A stretch of 32,210 nucleotides of DNA from Candidatus Dadabacteria bacterium (GTDB taxonomy: Bacteria > Desulfobacterota_D > UBA1144 > Nemesobacterales > Nemesobacteraceae), in NCBI GenBank assembly GCA_026706695.1, contig JAPOYE010000010.1, forward strand, positions 1 through 32,210, given 5' to 3'. Position 1 is the first letter of the stretch. Every line of letters begins with the position of its first letter. Positions 26,039-32,210 of this stretch are shown one piece after another. A program made the position numbers and the translations under genes. Below the pieces are notes generated by a model, which worked only from the letters and a program-made list of their open reading frames with translations, did no database searches and was not told the DNA's origin.

Positions 26039-27085
26039 TCAGTCCTCTATGGATTCGAGTATCCTGTCTGCAATCTCAAAAAAGGCCTTTCCAGCTGCAC
26101 TTTGCGGATCAGACTCCACGATAGGGGTTCCGTTATCTCCACCGATTCTTATCCGCGGATCGATTGGGATTTCTCCAAGAAACGGAACTTCAAACTTCTC
26201 TGCCATACGTCTTCCTCCACCCCTGCCGAATATGTCTATCTTGCCGTCTACATCGGGCATATCGAGATAGCTCATGTTCTCCACTATGCCAAGAATGGGA
26301 ATATTCAGTTTGTTAAACATCAGTATCCCTCTTCTTACGTCCACTAGAGCTACGTCCTGCGGAGTGGTTACTATAACCCCTCCGCTTATCGGGGCCGTCT
26401 GTGCCAGAGAAAGCTGGGCATCCCCCGTGCCTGGAGGAAGGTCAATTACCAAGTAATCCGTTCCGCTCCATTCAACGTCCTCGATGAACTGCTTTATCGC
26501 TCCGTGTACCATGGGACCTCTCCATATCACAGCGTCCTCCTCGTTCACGAGAAAACCGATGGACATTACCTTGAGGCCGAATTTTTCTATGGGAACGATC
26601 TTGTCATCGGCGGTTGCACGGGGTTTTTCGCTTATCCCCATCATCAAAGGAGCGCTCGGTCCCCAAATATCGGCATCCATAAGCCCGACTTTCTGTCTTT
26701 TTTTTGAGATTGCCAGGGAGAGGTTGGTTGCTATTGTTGACTTGCCGACTCCTCCTTTGCCGCTTGCGACGGCTATGTAGTACTTTATATCGGGAAGCTT
26801 GCTTTTTTCACTACCCGCATCGGCAGTTATCTGCTTCTGTGGTCGCGAGCCGATCTTCATCGAGAGGTCTTCAACTCCGGGTATGCCGAAAATGGCTTTT
26901 CGGACTTCTTCCTCGATTGTGGACTGAAGTTTCTGGTCGGGCTTGGGAAGTACTATGGAAAGGGTCACCTTCGAACCCTCCACAAGAATGTCTTTTACGA
27001 GACCGAAGGATACTATGTCCCGGTTAAATCCCGGATAGTTAACACCCTTAAGAACTTTTATTATCCGTTCTCTGTTTAGTTCCAC
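26039..27085 (-). CDS. mrp: Mrp/ApbC-family P-loop ATPase with N-terminal MIP18 domain
   Basis: Mrp/NBP35 ATPases carry and transfer Fe-S clusters. From GTG 27085 it is 348 residues. An N-terminal DUF59/MIP18 domain covers about 1-85, and a MinD-type ATPase domain has the deviant Walker A SGKGGVGKST at 108-117. DADIWGPS is switch I, and IDLPPGTGDAQLS is the Walker B region. The CPxCG cluster-bridging motif seen in E. coli Mrp after ENMSY is replaced by DMPDVDG (about 275-281), so no cysteine pair is available there. An ATG at 27166 would run through the sufT end. The GTG has AGGGGGA nine bases upstream and begins at the family's normal position. Confidence 0.9.
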   Translation of the reverse strand: MELNRERIIKVLKGVNYPGFNRDIVSFGLVKDILVEGSKVTLSIVLPKPDQKLQSTIEEEVRKAIFGIPGVEDLSMKIGSRPQKQITADAGSEKSKLPDIKYYIAVASGKGGVGKSTIATNLSLAISKKRQKVGLMDADIWGPSAPLMMGISEKPRATADDKIVPIEKFGLKVMSIGFLVNEEDAVIWRGPMVHGAIKQFIEDVEWSGTDYLVIDLPPGTGDAQLSLAQTAPISGGVIVTTPQDVALVDVRRGILMFNKLNIPILGIVENMSYLDMPDVDGKIDIFGRGGGRRMAEKFEVPFLGEIPIDPRIRIGGDNGTPIVESDPQSAAGKAFFEIADRILESIED

Positions 27086-27099
27086 GCGGAAAGTTCCCC

Positions 27100-27504
27100 C
27101 TAAGAGATACCCAGTTTCTTTTTTCCTTCCTCGGATATCATGTCGGGGTTCCAGGGAGGATCCCATATCACCTCTATAAGAACGTTATCGGCTCCCGCGT
27201 TTTTAAGGGCCATTTCAGCTTGGCCCGCTATATGTGCTCCCATGGCGCACCCTGGGGTGGTAAGGGTCATCTTGATTTGAACGTTCCGCCCGGAAATTTT
27301 GGTGTCGTAAATAAGCCCAAGATCCACTATGCTCACGGGAAGTTCGGGGTCGTACACATCCTTAAGAGCGCCGTAGACTGTCTCTTTCGTTATTTCGGGG
27401 CTGTCTTCGGGTTTTTTCTTTTTTTCAATCTTGGTAAAAGACACGGAGCTTTTATCCTTAGAAGGACCGCCCCTGTCTATCTGGATTATCTTTTTCATCC
27501 CCAT
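27100..27504 (-). CDS. sufT: MIP18/DUF59-family Fe-S assembly protein (SufT-like)
   Basis: The 134-residue protein is a single MIP18/DUF59 domain. The motif VYDPELPVSIVDLGLIYD spans about 50-67, and the reactive cysteine C86 lies in LTTPGCAMGAH. The WDPPWNPDMIS stretch is also typical. The family matures Fe-S proteins together with SUF-type machinery or with Mrp. The first 35 residues are a charged, Lys-rich extension not seen in minimal members. AGGAGG six bases before the ATG fixes the start. mrp follows 14 bases later and itself begins with another MIP18 domain, so the two probably act together. PaaD-like function is less likely without paa genes. Confidence 0.88.
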   Translation of the reverse strand: MGMKKIIQIDRGGPSKDKSSVSFTKIEKKKKPEDSPEITKETVYGALKDVYDPELPVSIVDLGLIYDTKISGRNVQIKMTLTTPGCAMGAHIAGQAEMALKNAGADNVLIEVIWDPPWNPDMISEEGKKKLGIS

Positions 27505-27843
27505 AATTTGCCTCCTGATTTCTTTTTTTAACTATACAACACTAGCTACAGTATCAAAGCCCTTTGCTAGTCTCTGAATCTTCAGCATCGTTAAGTTCGG
27601 TTGGTCGTGCCTGAAGATACAGCAGTTAAAAATTTTTCCGAGTAGAATTCAAGCACAAAATCACAGACACAGGTGGACTTAACTTCACTTATTTTGATAT
27701 TATAACTTAACCAAATGAATTTTCTAAGAACGGATTGACACATAGTAAGAGGTGTTTCGTACCGAATTTGGAAATTGCGTTTGCTCTTTGTATCCTCGAA
27801 TATATTTTCAATTAAAAATCGCTAGACCTTGAACTAAACCTTA
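27505..27843. other. AT-rich intergenic region between sufT and the helicase gene
   Basis: These 339 bases hold no convincing ORF. Near sufT is a nested palindrome: ACTAGC (27541-27546) with GCTAGT (27566-27571), and CAAAG-CC-CTTTG inside. It could be an operator or leader structure for the minus-strand operon. An imperfect inverted repeat pairs CTGAATCTTCAG (27574-27585) with CTGAAGATACAG (27611-27622). TTGACA near 27735 could be a -35 for the helicase, but no matching -10 is clear. The helicase ATG has no Shine-Dalgarno. Confidence 0.5.
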
Positions 27844-30800
27844 ATGCATCAAAAACGCAACATTCCTTGGCTTCAGATCCTCCGCTTTCATAAAGAAATA
27901 ACTCGAAGAGGTGAAGAGAATTTCTTTGCTCTTCCTGTAGATCAACTTGATTCCGACAGATGCTCTTCTCTATATAAATTTGAATTCAAGAGCTTTGCAG
28001 GACCATGGCAAGTTGATCCTGATACGTTCAAGAGTAAGCCATTTCTCCAGAAACTAAAGCGGAAAGAAGTGGATGAAATTTTCCTTGGCGGCCCTTGCTG
28101 GTACAAGGCTCCAAGAAAAAACGACCGAGGCAGTGGTAATTGGTTACCGGTTCTATACCGACAGATAAAATTTTACTTAGATACGGATTCCGTCTGCATT
28201 GTCCCCGATCAAGGTAAATGGGAAATATCCCCTCTAGTCTACGATCTCCTCGAGAGTAAAAGCGCCCAGTCTAGGCATCCACTGGAACAATGGTTGCCTA
28301 ATCTTATAGAAATTACTCAGAATCTATCCACAACTAAGAATATTGATCTTACAGAGGCTTTAATCGATATCTTATCAAGCAACATCCCCGAACTTGGAGA
28401 AGAGCTTCGGAAGAAAATTCAATCTGGCATCTCACATCTACCTTCGCCTTGGATTATCTTTAGTCCAACAACATCTTCTTCCCCAGTATATCAGCATTTG
28501 ATGTCTGATTATGAAGAACTAGATAAAATTCTTGAAAAACAGACTGACAACATTGGCGGGTTTGAGCTCCTTGAAGATATAGCCGTTACTGAGAATGCTC
28601 AATCGGTTTCATTACTCCCAGTTGTTCCTCTTAATAGATCTCAAGAGAAAGCGGTTTTGGGTATTCTGGCTGGAAAGCCTGTTACAGTCATCAGTGGTCC
28701 TCCGGGAACCGGCAAGAGTCAGGTTGTCGTCTCATCTTTGCTTAACTGTTGGTCACAAGGGAAGAGTGTTCTTTTCGCTAGTCAGAACAATCAAGCTGTT
28801 GATACCGTCCGAGAAAGGATAAAGAAGTTTGAAGATCAATTTCCGATAGCGATTCGCACAGGAAGCAAACGTTATAGAACTGATTTCAACGAAGCACTTC
28901 GGCGTATTCTAAACGCCATCACGTACTCAACAGCAAATTCTTTATCTACAAAACAGGATGCTTCTCAGCGCAAAGACAGTCTGTTGAGTAAAAAGAAACA
29001 AATTGAGGAATTTCTCGATAGTAAGCTCCCCCAACGTATTAATGAATCCTTAAGCTCTTCTCTTGAAGCCTATGCATTGCATCAGAGTACACTTGCCGAG
29101 TTACAAGAAGCCAAAGAATCTCTACGTTCAGACCTTAGGAAAATTGGCTACACCCTGGATGCAGAAGACTTCAAACGCTTGGTGTTTGACCCGCTGAACA
29201 CCTGGGTTGGAAATATCAGTTCTGTCAAAAAAGAAATAATTGATAACAAAAAAAAAGAAGAACTATATAAAAGCGAAGCAACAGAAGCAGAAGAGAAACG
29301 CAACCAATCAGTTCAGACTTTAGGGCTCGATTTCTCAAAGGTTAGAAGCTGGGATTGGCTCATTTCTGCACAAGGCCCTGAGTCTCTCCAAGCGTGGTTA
29401 ACAAGCTTTCACAAACTAATTGATAATATTCATGAACACGATCTTGAAGTTTTACCTTGGGATAATAACTACGAATACTGGAAAAGCTCTGAACAAGCTG
29501 AAAAATGGTCAGAAAATACACACAAGCTTGTTGAGGTCATAAACTCTGACTTTGGTCAACTTGAACAACTCATTAAAGAAGTTGCCGAGGCCGAATCCGA
29601 ACTCAACCAAGAACATGAAGTTTCCAATTCTCTCCTTGATATAATGGCAAAGCCACACTTATTGGATGCTCTCCAAAGGTGGACCACCCTCTACTCTGAA
29701 TACTGTACTCAACCCAAAACATGGGTTTCCTGGCTCCCTTTTTCTGATAAGAGCAAGTTGAACCGAGCTATTCGAGAAGTCGAAAAGATTCTTCTGCCTA
29801 CCTTTCCCGCATCCATGTGGCAGAGAGTAGGACCTCTTAATGATGAAGGAAGGAGAAGGTTTGTACAGATCATTGAAAAGAACGAGAAATGGTTAGATCT
29901 TCGAAAAGCAACGGATATAAAACAGGACTCAATAAGATCTAAGTTTCGCGAGTTTCGTACCCTCGCTACAAACCTCAGACTTGCTGATATACCACAATCG
30001 GAAGATCTTAATCTGTGGATGAAATTTGCCGAAGTTCTTGCGGAGAACCAGAAAATCGCCAAGGTAGCAGCAACCGCATGGAGACATCGCGAAAACCGAG
30101 AAAAGATCTGTGGACAACTGCAACAAGCTGTATCTAAATACAATACTATTGCTTCGGGTATCCCTCTAAGAGAAGCTTGGGTAAGTGGTATAGGTGCTCA
30201 GTTTCATGAGACTATTAATGCTCTCAATTCCACCCCTTCTTTTGAAAATATAGTTGCCGTGAGGACTGTTCTATACAGTAAAGATGTCGATGAATTTATA
30301 GAAATCTGGAAAGAAGCCCGCAAACACGAGAAAAGATTGCGGTCTATTCAATCTTCTGTGGAGGAACTGCCTACAAAGTTAGATCTGATTGAAAACTGGT
30401 GGAATATAAAGCCAGATTTGGTTCCAATTGAGGCCCATCAAAGAAGCCAACTTCCTAAAGGGGATGACGTAGTTTTTGAACATACCAAAACTTGTCAGGA
30501 ATGGTTGGAATCTTGGAATATCTTTGTATCTAGAACACGCCAAAAGTACGAAGACAAGCTTCAAGAAGAAAAAAATTGGGCATGTAAAAAACTTGCTGAA
30601 GCTGGCGAGCTGATCCCTAACAAAGACAAAAAGAATATTCAAGTCCTTATAGATCAAGTTGTCGGAAAGGATACTGATGAGTGGCCGGTAACTAAACTTC
30701 GAGATGCTTTCGGCAAATTTGAGCCTGTCCGTCTTAAAGCACGAGTTGAAAATATAAATTACGAGCTTGAGAAACTATCTTTTGACGAAGCTAAAGATCG

Positions 30801-32142
30801 TTGGGTTCAACAGTTATCCCAAGACCCAGAAATTCAAGACGTGCTTCGTCAACTTCTTGATAGATATCAACAGTCTGGAGGGGGTTCTATATTACCAGAA
30901 GATTACGATTTATTTGAAAAAGCTTTAAAAGCCATACCCGTATGGATTATTACGGCTCTCTCACCGCAATCTTTACCTTTAATTCCGCACTTATTTGATG
31001 TTCTAGTGATTGATGAAGCTACTCAATGTACTATTACTAATCTCCTTCCGCTAATTTATAGAGCAAAGAGTCTTGTGGTTATAGGAGACCCGGAACAGCT
31101 TCCTGCTATTCCAACATTGAGAGAAAACGCGGAAAGGACACTTGCACAGAATTTCCAAGTTGATCAGTGGCTTGATCTGCTTGGACACTCACAAAGAACT
31201 GTTTACGATACAGCTGTTCAATGTCTGCCCCGTCGATACTCGGACATAGTCTTGCTTGAAGAGCACTACAGGAGTCATCCTTTAATAATCGGATTTTCAA
31301 ATCGATATATTTACCAGAAACGACTGCAACTCAAAAAAGATTCCATCGAAATTTCAAACGCTCTTGGAATATCAGGAATTGATGTTCAAGGATTCTGCAA
31401 GCGGGGACAATTAGGTCGGAGCTGGATTAACGAAAAAGAAGCTGAAAAAGTAGTAACTTTAATCCAAGAGTTACGAAACAACAATCGTTACTCTAATTTT
31501 ACCATAGGTGTAGTCACTCCTTTCCGCTCTCAAGCAGATCTTATTGCTAATCTCATTGAGAAACAAACCTCTGATTCTGATATCCATAGGGACATCACCA
31601 TAGGAACGGTTCATACCTATCAGGGTGATGAACGCGACTTGATGATTTTCTCGCCGGTTGTTTCTAAAGGAATTTCTGACAATACAGTTCAGTGGGTTGG
31701 AAACCCGAACATGATAAATGTTGCTGTGACCCGAGCCAGAGAGGGATTCTTCTTCGTAGCGGATTTCGGAGTGTGCCGACGACAGAGGGGTGTCTTAGGA
31801 CATCTCACTCGCTATGTTGAAGACGTGGAAAATCTCCGCAAGACCAGTGCAGAGGAACTCGAACTCTTCAGTTGGATGGTAATGCAGGGATGGGACCCTG
31901 AAGTGCATCCAAAGATTAGAGACATTGAGGTGGATTTTGTTCTAAAGAAAGCAGGTAGAAAAATAGTAGTTGAAGTCGACGGAGAGCAACACAAACGGCG
32001 AAGAGTTGAAGATAAAAGTCGAGATGTTTTTTTAAACTCACGCGGCTACGAAGTATATCGTTTTCCAACTCGAGAAGTCCGCGAAGCCCCTGCTTCCATC
32101 ATTCATCTGTTGGGAAAAAAGCTTTCTGGGGAATTTAGTTAG
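27844..32142 (+). CDS. Large SF1 (Upf1/DNA2-like) helicase fused to a DUF559/Vsr-like nuclease; candidate defence protein
   Basis: The 1432-residue protein contains a complete set of superfamily 1 helicase motifs. Walker A GPPGTGKS is at 285-292, DEATQ at 1057-1061 and GDPEQLP at 1081-1087. EEHYRSHP is at 1139-1146, TPFRSQ at 1225-1230, HTYQGDE at 1257-1263 and NVAVTRAR at 1292-1299. Between motifs I and II lie about 770 residues, mostly charged helices with 23 tryptophans, resembling a coiled-coil insertion. Residues 1-260 match nothing I recognise. The C-terminus (about 1340-1432) has a PD-(D/E)XK-type nuclease: DFV with D1364, then VEVDGEQH with E1377 and D1379, and GYEVYRFP, as in DUF559. 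The gene stands alone, is AT-richer than its neighbours, and has no Shine-Dalgarno. Helicase-nuclease fusions of this kind are common among phage-defence proteins. That role is inferred; DNA repair or RNA processing are alternatives. Confidence 0.85.
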   Translation: MHQKRNIPWLQILRFHKEITRRGEENFFALPVDQLDSDRCSSLYKFEFKSFAGPWQVDPDTFKSKPFLQKLKRKEVDEIFLGGPCWYKAPRKNDRGSGNWLPVLYRQIKFYLDTDSVCIVPDQGKWEISPLVYDLLESKSAQSRHPLEQWLPNLIEITQNLSTTKNIDLTEALIDILSSNIPELGEELRKKIQSGISHLPSPWIIFSPTTSSSPVYQHLMSDYEELDKILEKQTDNIGGFELLEDIAVTENAQSVSLLPVVPLNRSQEKAVLGILAGKPVTVISGPPGTGKSQVVVSSLLNCWSQGKSVLFASQNNQAVDTVRERIKKFEDQFPIAIRTGSKRYRTDFNEALRRILNAITYSTANSLSTKQDASQRKDSLLSKKKQIEEFLDSKLPQRINESLSSSLEAYALHQSTLAELQEAKESLRSDLRKIGYTLDAEDFKRLVFDPLNTWVGNISSVKKEIIDNKKKEELYKSEATEAEEKRNQSVQTLGLDFSKVRSWDWLISAQGPESLQAWLTSFHKLIDNIHEHDLEVLPWDNNYEYWKSSEQAEKWSENTHKLVEVINSDFGQLEQLIKEVAEAESELNQEHEVSNSLLDIMAKPHLLDALQRWTTLYSEYCTQPKTWVSWLPFSDKSKLNRAIREVEKILLPTFPASMWQRVGPLNDEGRRRFVQIIEKNEKWLDLRKATDIKQDSIRSKFREFRTLATNLRLADIPQSEDLNLWMKFAEVLAENQKIAKVAATAWRHRENREKICGQLQQAVSKYNTIASGIPLREAWVSGIGAQFHETINALNSTPSFENIVAVRTVLYSKDVDEFIEIWKEARKHEKRLRSIQSSVEELPTKLDLIENWWNIKPDLVPIEAHQRSQLPKGDDVVFEHTKTCQEWLESWNIFVSRTRQKYEDKLQEEKNWACKKLAEAGELIPNKDKKNIQVLIDQVVGKDTDEWPVTKLRDAFGKFEPVRLKARVENINYELEKLSFDEAKDRWVQQLSQDPEIQDVLRQLLDRYQQSGGGSILPEDYDLFEKALKAIPVWIITALSPQSLPLIPHLFDVLVIDEATQCTITNLLPLIYRAKSLVVIGDPEQLPAIPTLRENAERTLAQNFQVDQWLDLLGHSQRTVYDTAVQCLPRRYSDIVLLEEHYRSHPLIIGFSNRYIYQKRLQLKKDSIEISNALGISGIDVQGFCKRGQLGRSWINEKEAEKVVTLIQELRNNNRYSNFTIGVVTPFRSQADLIANLIEKQTSDSDIHRDITIGTVHTYQGDERDLMIFSPVVSKGISDNTVQWVGNPNMINVAVTRAREGFFFVADFGVCRRQRGVLGHLTRYVEDVENLRKTSAEELELFSWMVMQGWDPEVHPKIRDIEVDFVLKKAGRKIVVEVDGEQHKRRRVEDKSRDVFLNSRGYEVYRFPTREVREAPASIIHLLGKKLSGEFS

Positions 32143-32210
32143 TTATAACCACCCTGAGGCACTTGCGTAGTTGAGTATAGCCATACAGGGCAAGAGGTTT
32201 GAGGAGGGGC
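32143..32210. other. Window end after the helicase gene
   Basis: The last 68 bases contain no recognisable gene, terminator or attachment repeat. Whether further genes of a system follow on the right cannot be seen. Confidence 0.4.

What the first reader, a model, noticed from the sequence alone, without database searches (positions are those of the whole stretch)
27844..32142. Stand-alone giant helicase-nuclease: candidate new single-gene defence protein
One 1432-residue protein joins an unrecognised N-terminal region, a complete Upf1/DNA2-like SF1 helicase, a very long inserted helical segment and a C-terminal DUF559-like nuclease. Known defence proteins with a related logic include Hhe (DUF4011-helicase-Vsr) and type II Mokosh (helicase with a PLD nuclease), but the domain set here differs from both as far as I can read it. 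The gene is isolated, AT-richer and placed beside housekeeping genes, as expected for an accessory locus.
Basis: partly seen in the sequence, partly recalled or inferred. Interest (0 to 1): 0.75.

Follow-up and report, generated by a model that had tools for sequence, protein, structure and literature searches.

The report
Stand-alone helicase-nuclease, likely defence protein
A single giant protein that joins an RNA/DNA motor, a long coiled-coil arm and a nucleic-acid-cutting domain belongs to a small, previously unnamed family that hops between bacteria and archaea and often sits among virus-defence genes, so it is probably a one-gene antiviral system that could be tested directly.

Summary
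The ORF is real (27844-32142, 1432 aa). It carries an N-terminal domain that Pfam does not recognise, a complete UPF1-like SF1 helicase split by a ~690-residue all-helical insert, and a C-terminal DUF559 (Vsr-like) nuclease with its catalytic residues. I found 13 relatives that align along the whole protein or along the part preserved at contig ends (27-44% identity). They form one clade (support 100/99) spread thinly over methanogenic archaea, Spirochaetota, Bacillota, Planctomycetota and Pseudomonadota. In the window's genome the gene lies in a segment inserted between mrp and ispG; 11 congeners have the uninterrupted site, and no other genome of the phylum has the protein. Neighbours of relatives match PADLOC defence models more often than control genes from the same genomes (10/70 against 2/70). 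It fails the membership tests for Hhe, Mokosh II and ProA. The closest described design is the Vsr-fused CnuH helicase of Type III-B CoCoNuTs (PMC11090510), but I found no McrBC partner in the flanks held. Verdict: a new stand-alone variant of a known defence-helicase kind. Antiphage activity and whether the substrate is RNA or DNA are inferred. 'Isolated gene' holds on one side only, because the contig ends 68 bp after the stop codon.

The parts
27535..32210 (.). Segment inserted between mrp/MIP18-like and ispG; it continues beyond the contig end, and the far side is contig C112
   Evidence: Homology to all 11 congener loci stops at 27521-27534; in them ispG follows within 186-300 bp. In this genome ispG starts 110 bases into contig C112, whose first ~52 bp are foreign.
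27844..32142 (+). 1432-aa helicase-nuclease gene
   Evidence: full-length relatives
27844..28629 (+). N-terminal domain (aa 1-262), mixed alpha/beta, no Pfam match and no solved-fold match
   Evidence: model pLDDT 80.5, pTM 0.76; no PDB match below E 0.1; one viral AAA protein E 4.3e-6
28627..28875 (+). First part of RecA1: Q-like motif PLNRSQ, Walker A GPPGTGKS (28696-28719), motif Ia
28876..30948 (+). Helical insert (aa 345-1035) with long helices, probable coiled-coil arm between Walker A and Walker B
   Evidence: model pLDDT 86.8; weak resemblance to SMC, Rad50 and Wadjet coiled coils, best E 1.1e-3
30949..31833 (+). Rest of helicase core: DEATQ (31012), GDPEQLP (31084), HYRSHPL (31264), VHTYQGDERD (31609), NVAVTRARE (31717)
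31855..32139 (+). DUF559/Vsr-like PD-(D/E)XK nuclease: ELELFSWM (31855), EVDF (31927), VVEVDGEQH (31966)
   Evidence: Pfam DUF559 43.4 bits, cut-off 20.6; catalytic pattern kept in 11 of 13 members with a readable C-terminus
26039..27166 (-). mrp/NUBPL-type P-loop NTPase, conserved left flank (host)
   Evidence: 89-99% identical in congeners with a full-length match
27100..27504 (-). Small host gene beside mrp, MIP18/SufT-like by reading (not tested); last host gene before the insertion

Best explanation
It is a stand-alone, horizontally mobile defence protein. Its UPF1-like SF1 motor engages single-stranded nucleic acid made during infection by a virus or other mobile element. The N-terminal domain and the long coiled-coil arm sense or gate that engagement. 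ATP-driven movement then brings the C-terminal Vsr-like nuclease to cut the foreign, and perhaps also the host, nucleic acid. Shown here: domain order, intact helicase and nuclease motifs, a distinct clade, insertion at this site, patchy cross-domain distribution and defence-gene neighbours. Inferred: translocation, cutting, sensing role, antiphage outcome. Whether the substrate is RNA or DNA is open.
For: All SF1 motifs and the DUF559 catalytic residues are present, and the nuclease residues are kept in 11 of 13 members. The relatives form one clade, 100/99, across several bacterial phyla and Methanobacteriota. The family is rare: 1/58 genomes in its own phylum, 5/375, 1/374, about 1/362 and 2/369 in four other phyla. 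The gene sits in an insertion absent from 11 congeners. Ten of 70 neighbour proteins match PADLOC models against 2 of 70 controls from the same genomes (Fisher p 0.015). These include a DUF1156-methylase/DUF3780/DUF499 cluster, a dCTPase, an HEC-01B ATPase and a run of UvrD-like helicases, one at E 5.7e-180 to RTasHel.
Against: There is no experiment. Half of the neighbour hits are UvrD-like helicases, a fold that housekeeping proteins also have; without them the count is 5 against 2. Neighbouring genes are not independent of each other. Several members (ANME-2c, two methanogens) sit among ordinary genes. Two members (L060, L167) have lost the nuclease residues while keeping the helicase, so cutting may not be essential everywhere. 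The 3' side of the window's gene is unseen.
Confidence: 0.62

Rival explanations
1. It is the helicase-nuclease subunit (CnuH-like) of a CoCoNuT-type Type IV restriction system whose McrB/McrC partners are encoded elsewhere or in the unassembled gap.
For: Same design: UPF1-like SF1, helical insert after Walker A, fused Vsr-like nuclease (PMC11090510). A Rhizobium locus with a similar helicase-nuclease has coiled-coil, McrB-like ATPase and DUF2357 genes in a row. The window's genome has an McrC gene (C52).
Against: No McrC match lies on the contig of any clade member. Nine of 13 genomes, including two essentially single-contig chromosomes (G223, G238), have no PF10117 match at all. The Rhizobium helicase falls in another part of the tree.
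Confidence: 0.12
2. A repair or RNA-surveillance helicase (Dna2/UPF1-like) with no role in defence.
For: Best solved-structure relatives include UPF1, SEN1, IGHMBP2/SMUBP-2 and DNA2.
Against: Absent from all 57 other genomes of the phylum searched and from more than 98% of genomes in four other phyla; inserted locus; defence neighbours. The score to the IGHMBP2-type helicase model is far below its cut-off (137 against 349 bits).
Confidence: 0.13
3. A divergent Mokosh type II (MkoC) in which the PLD nuclease was swapped for DUF559.
For: MkoC is the best PADLOC model (E 2.4e-64), and a relative with a PLD-like ending (L021, by reading) lies in the neighbouring part of the tree.
Against: The best stretch covers only 628-969 of 1136, no PLD is present, and the N-terminus and insert are not matched. 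The clade is separate with 100/99 support.
Confidence: 0.1
4. Selfish cargo or a decaying gene of a mobile element.
For: Inserted, with a 51-bp repeat at the contig end; transposase-like genes near L060 and L166.
Against: Intact 1432-codon frame and conserved motifs in 11 of 13 members; no integrase or transposase seen on the visible side.
Confidence: 0.03

Closest known systems
CnuH of Type III-B CoCoNuT (PMC11090510)
   Same: UPF1-like SF1 helicase, large helical coiled-coil insert after Walker A, Vsr-like PD-(D/E)XK nuclease fused to the helicase
   Different: CnuH is encoded with CnuB/McrB, CnuC/McrC and coiled-coil CnuA and has an N-terminal wHTH; here the gene stands alone in the flanks seen and the N-terminal domain matches no solved fold
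Mokosh type II, MkoC (PADLOC PDLC03924)
   Same: Single protein; related SF1 core; C-terminal nuclease position
   Different: DUF559 instead of PLD; unrelated N-terminus; best stretch limited to 628-969 of 1136
Hhe (DUF4011-helicase-Vsr; NF042953)
   Same: SF1 helicase followed by a Vsr-like nuclease in one protein
   Different: No DUF4011 match; 75 bits against a cut-off of 2000
PADLOC candidate PDC-S37 (PDLC05009)
   Same: SF1 core plus MTES_1575/DUF559-type nuclease
   Different: Best stretch on P0001 is the helicase only (114.5 bits, 918-1189 of 1550), while L025 and L026 match 288-1351
ProA (NF058533)
   Same: Related SF1 core; aligns 232-1300 of P0001
   Different: 140 bits against a cut-off of 1500; the C-terminal nuclease of P0001 is outside the match

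Membership tests
UPF1-like SF1 helicases | Both RecA domains with motifs I, Ia, II, III, IV, V, VI | tested here: met
   AAA_11 and AAA_12 over cut-off; motifs conserved across clade; UPF1, SEN1, DNA2 hits
DUF559/Vsr-like PD-(D/E)XK nucleases | Domain match with D...ExD catalytic pattern | tested here: met
   43.4 bits against 20.6; EVDF and VVEVDGEQH
Hhe | DUF4011 N-terminal domain and score over NF042953 cut-off | tested here: not met
   No DUF4011 in Pfam scan; 75.4 bits against 2000
Mokosh type II (MkoC) | C-terminal PLD nuclease and full-length MkoC match | tested here: not met
   DUF559 instead, no PLD; best stretch covers helicase core only
ProA | Score over NF058533 equivalog cut-off | tested here: not met
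   140.3 bits against 1500
PDC-S37 | Full-length model match including the nuclease | tested here: not met
   918-1189 of 1550 only, compared with 298-1341 in L025
CoCoNuT Type III-B | SF1 helicase with helical insert after Walker A and fused Vsr-like nuclease | tested here: met
   definition
CoCoNuT Type III-B | Operon with McrB (CnuB) and McrC (CnuC) | tested here: not met
   No PF10117 match on the contig of any of 13 members; none anywhere in 9 of 13 genomes. Limits: the window's own 3' flank is unseen, and the model also failed to ring on the Rhizobium plasmid, which has a DUF2357 gene.
CoCoNuT Type III-B | N-terminal wHTH and UPF1-type OB fold | tested here: inconclusive
   N-terminal model is fairly confident but has no PDB match
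Antiphage defence systems | Protection against phage | not testable with these tools
   Only genomic association available

The most novel reading that the evidence does not exclude
A new single-gene immune system, shared by methanogenic archaea and bacteria, in which an SMC-like coiled-coil arm inserted into a UPF1-like motor, together with a new N-terminal fold, senses infection and switches on a fused Vsr-like nuclease without McrBC or any partner.
Probability: 0.4. Interest if true: 0.72.

Novelty: new variant of a known kind. Interest (0 to 1): 0.55.

Why it matters
Helicase-nuclease fusions are a recurring design in prokaryotic immunity, and most have no known trigger. This clade packs motor, arm, sensor candidate and cutter into one polypeptide and is found in both archaea and bacteria. 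That makes it a compact system for asking how a UPF1-like motor is coupled to a nuclease. Two natural members with degenerate nucleases give a built-in comparison. It also shows that the Vsr-fused helicase design of CoCoNuTs can occur without an McrBC partner nearby.

Tried and rejected
A direct whole-protein scan of genome and viral contigs found nothing; the family appeared only after aligning the helicase half with two plasmid relatives. Phage records give only partial matches centred on the helicase core. Viral contigs yielded helicase relatives, but none aligns along the whole protein. The N-terminal domain was searched against PDB and viral models: no solved fold, one viral AAA protein. 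The insert's SMC/Rad50 hits have TM-scores of 0.08-0.18 and were taken as generic coiled coil, not homology. The 'Mokosh' and 'Hhe' filings were rejected by the scores. A DUF2357 (PF04411) search found nothing, but its control also failed, so it is not used as evidence. Papers on ProA were sought without success. Helicase hits in the window's phylum (L002-L008) were rejected as clade members because they cover only the core or the core plus nuclease. Rfam shows only two tRNAs in the window.
Full report
The observation. The frame at 27844-32142 is open for 1432 codons, and the opposite strand is riddled with stops. Pfam places AAA_11 at 263-434, AAA_12 at 1132-1306 and DUF559 at 1363-1421, all over their cut-offs, and gives nothing for 1-260. 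The helicase motifs are complete: PLNRSQ, GPPGTGKS, DEATQ, GDPEQLP, HYRSHPL, VHTYQGDERD, NVAVTRARE. The nuclease has EVDF and VVEVDGEQH. 'Isolated' can be checked on one side only, because the window is contig C10 and ends 68 bp after the stop codon.

Insertion. Thirteen other genomes of the genus are held, and 11 could be compared at this place. Similarity to the window stops in all of them between 27521 and 27534. In all 11 the next gene is ispG, starting 186-300 bp further on, followed by a prolyl-tRNA synthetase-like gene (both names by reading). In the window's genome ispG starts 110 bases into contig C112; only about the first 52 bp of that contig are foreign, and the rest of the compared stretch is 83-97% identical to the congeners. 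So the segment from about 27535 to the contig end, plus an unassembled gap, was inserted between the mrp pair and ispG. Its G+C is 41.2%, against 47.2% for the rest of the contig. A 51-bp stretch at the contig end resembles one near the end of contig C34 (90%), so the assembly probably broke at a repeat.

Relatives. Whole-protein scans failed. An alignment of the helicase half with two plasmid relatives brought in 80 loci. Eight of these belong with P0001 along the whole protein or along the part present: Spirochaetia, ANME-2c, bacterium DOLZORAL124, a euryarchaeote, Clostridia, Pirellulaceae, Methanoregula and Thioalkalivibrio. A profile search in four phyla added G223, G425 and G238 from the archaeal phylum (the last more distant) and G1254 from the phylum of the Clostridia member, and a second partial copy in the Pirellulaceae genome. 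Identity to P0001 is 27-44%. In a 95-row tree of the helicase core the 14 rows form one clade, support 100/99, in all 200 bootstrap trees. The clade is rare: 5 of 375, 1 of 374, about 1 of 362 and 2 of 369 genomes in the four phyla, and only the window's genome among 58 in its own phylum. Archaea and bacteria are mixed in the tree, which points to horizontal transfer.

Anatomy. The N-terminal domain is conserved in the clade (IPW..V..FH.E, GGP, PLLYRE) and appears recognisable in shorter archaeal relatives. Its model is fairly confident (pLDDT 80.5, pTM 0.76). No solved structure matches it (best E 0.14); one viral AAA protein does (E 4.3e-6), so the domain is probably shared with other helicases of this kind. 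Residues 345-1035 fold as long helices (pLDDT 86.8). The nearest solved structures are SMC, Rad50 and Wadjet coiled coils at marginal E-values and low TM-scores, which supports 'coiled-coil arm' and no more. The nuclease pattern is intact in 11 of 13 members with a readable C-terminus; L060 and L167 have lost it while keeping the helicase.

Neighbours. L168 lies beside a cluster matching PADLOC PLD_Helicase, DUF1156 methylase, DUF3780 and DUF499, and a PDC-S09 (nucleotidyltransferase-like) gene. L064 is followed by a dCTPase match. L062 is preceded by an HEC-01B ATPase. L060 is followed 6 bp later by a UvrD-like helicase. L173 is preceded by four genes on the same strand, taken from the counts to be the other UvrD-like matches. 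The Pirellulaceae partial copy sits beside a PDC-S37/Hhe-like fragment. Methanoregula has a YhcG/DUF1016 nuclease. With one threshold (E 1e-15), at least 10 of 70 neighbour proteins match PADLOC against 2 of 70 random proteins from the same genomes; Fisher p is 0.015. The count of 10 combines with the individual matches. Half of the hits are UvrD-like and may be generic; one of them matches RTasHel at 5.7e-180. Three or four members stand among ordinary genes. The association is real but modest.

Mechanism. The established roles of these domains suggest an ATP-driven motor on single-stranded nucleic acid with a fused cutter. In Hachiman a helicase senses damaged DNA and releases a nuclease (PMC12278908). 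[quoted passage not shown] I propose the same coupling here within one chain, with the N-terminal domain and arm as sensor or gate. Everything after 'intact motifs' is inference, and RNA against DNA is unresolved.

Comparison. Curated scores exclude Hhe (75 bits of 2000), ProA (140 of 1500) and the IGHMBP2-type helicase (137 of 349). MkoC matches mainly the helicase core and has a different nuclease. The Type III-B CoCoNuT helicase is the closest described design. Its defining partners were tested: McrC (PF10117) occurs in four of the 13 genomes, always on another contig than the clade member, and not at all in the two essentially single-contig chromosomes. The Rhizobium locus L023 has a helicase-MTES_1575 protein, two coiled-coil proteins (one with an McrB-like ATPase) and a DUF2357 protein; it looks like such a system, and its helicase branches elsewhere. 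PF10117 did not ring on that plasmid, so absence by this model is not proof.

Verdict. The architecture is a new stand-alone variant of a known kind rather than a new category.

Noticed in passing
L023:7143-17439 and L022:7902-17374 (Rhizobium plasmids): Helicase-MTES_1575 nuclease (shown for L023), coiled-coil protein, coiled-coil plus McrB-like ATPase, DUF2357 protein and a further gene in a row; looks like a Type III-B CoCoNuT, next to Shedu and restriction genes in L023.
   Followed up: partly
L096:7439-11206, with similar-length relatives in other Streptomyces and Nocardia loci: Caspase domain (EACC1-associated type, NF047832) fused to the same SF1 helicase core in L096; possible protease-armed relative.
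   Followed up: no
L071:6953-11239: Kinase-like N-terminus (PD-T4-6/mad6 model matches) fused to the SF1 core, with homology continuing into the DUF559 region; another effector swap on the same motor.
   Followed up: no
L173:10655-19724: Four genes on one strand, UvrD-like by reading and by model counts, directly upstream of a clade member, one apparently matching RTasHel at 5.7e-180; possible multi-helicase operon.
   Followed up: partly
L060:6929-13485: Clade member with degenerate nuclease residues and an adjacent UvrD-like gene 6 bp downstream, perhaps a two-gene replacement.
   Followed up: partly
window 32158-32208 and G000 contig C34:17144-17194: 51-bp repeat, 90% identical, near the ends of two contigs; probably a dispersed repeat that broke the assembly.
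   Followed up: partly
congener loci L047, L049, L050, L053, L054, 3.1-5.8 kb beyond the insertion site: A second variable spot after the proS-like gene: an ~850-aa ORF or two smaller ORFs present in some congeners and absent in others.
   Followed up: no
L056:3123-6445 (contig C34): Two paralogous secreted-looking proteins ending in a similar glycine-cysteine, hydrophobic, arginine tail, like a sorting signal.
   Followed up: no
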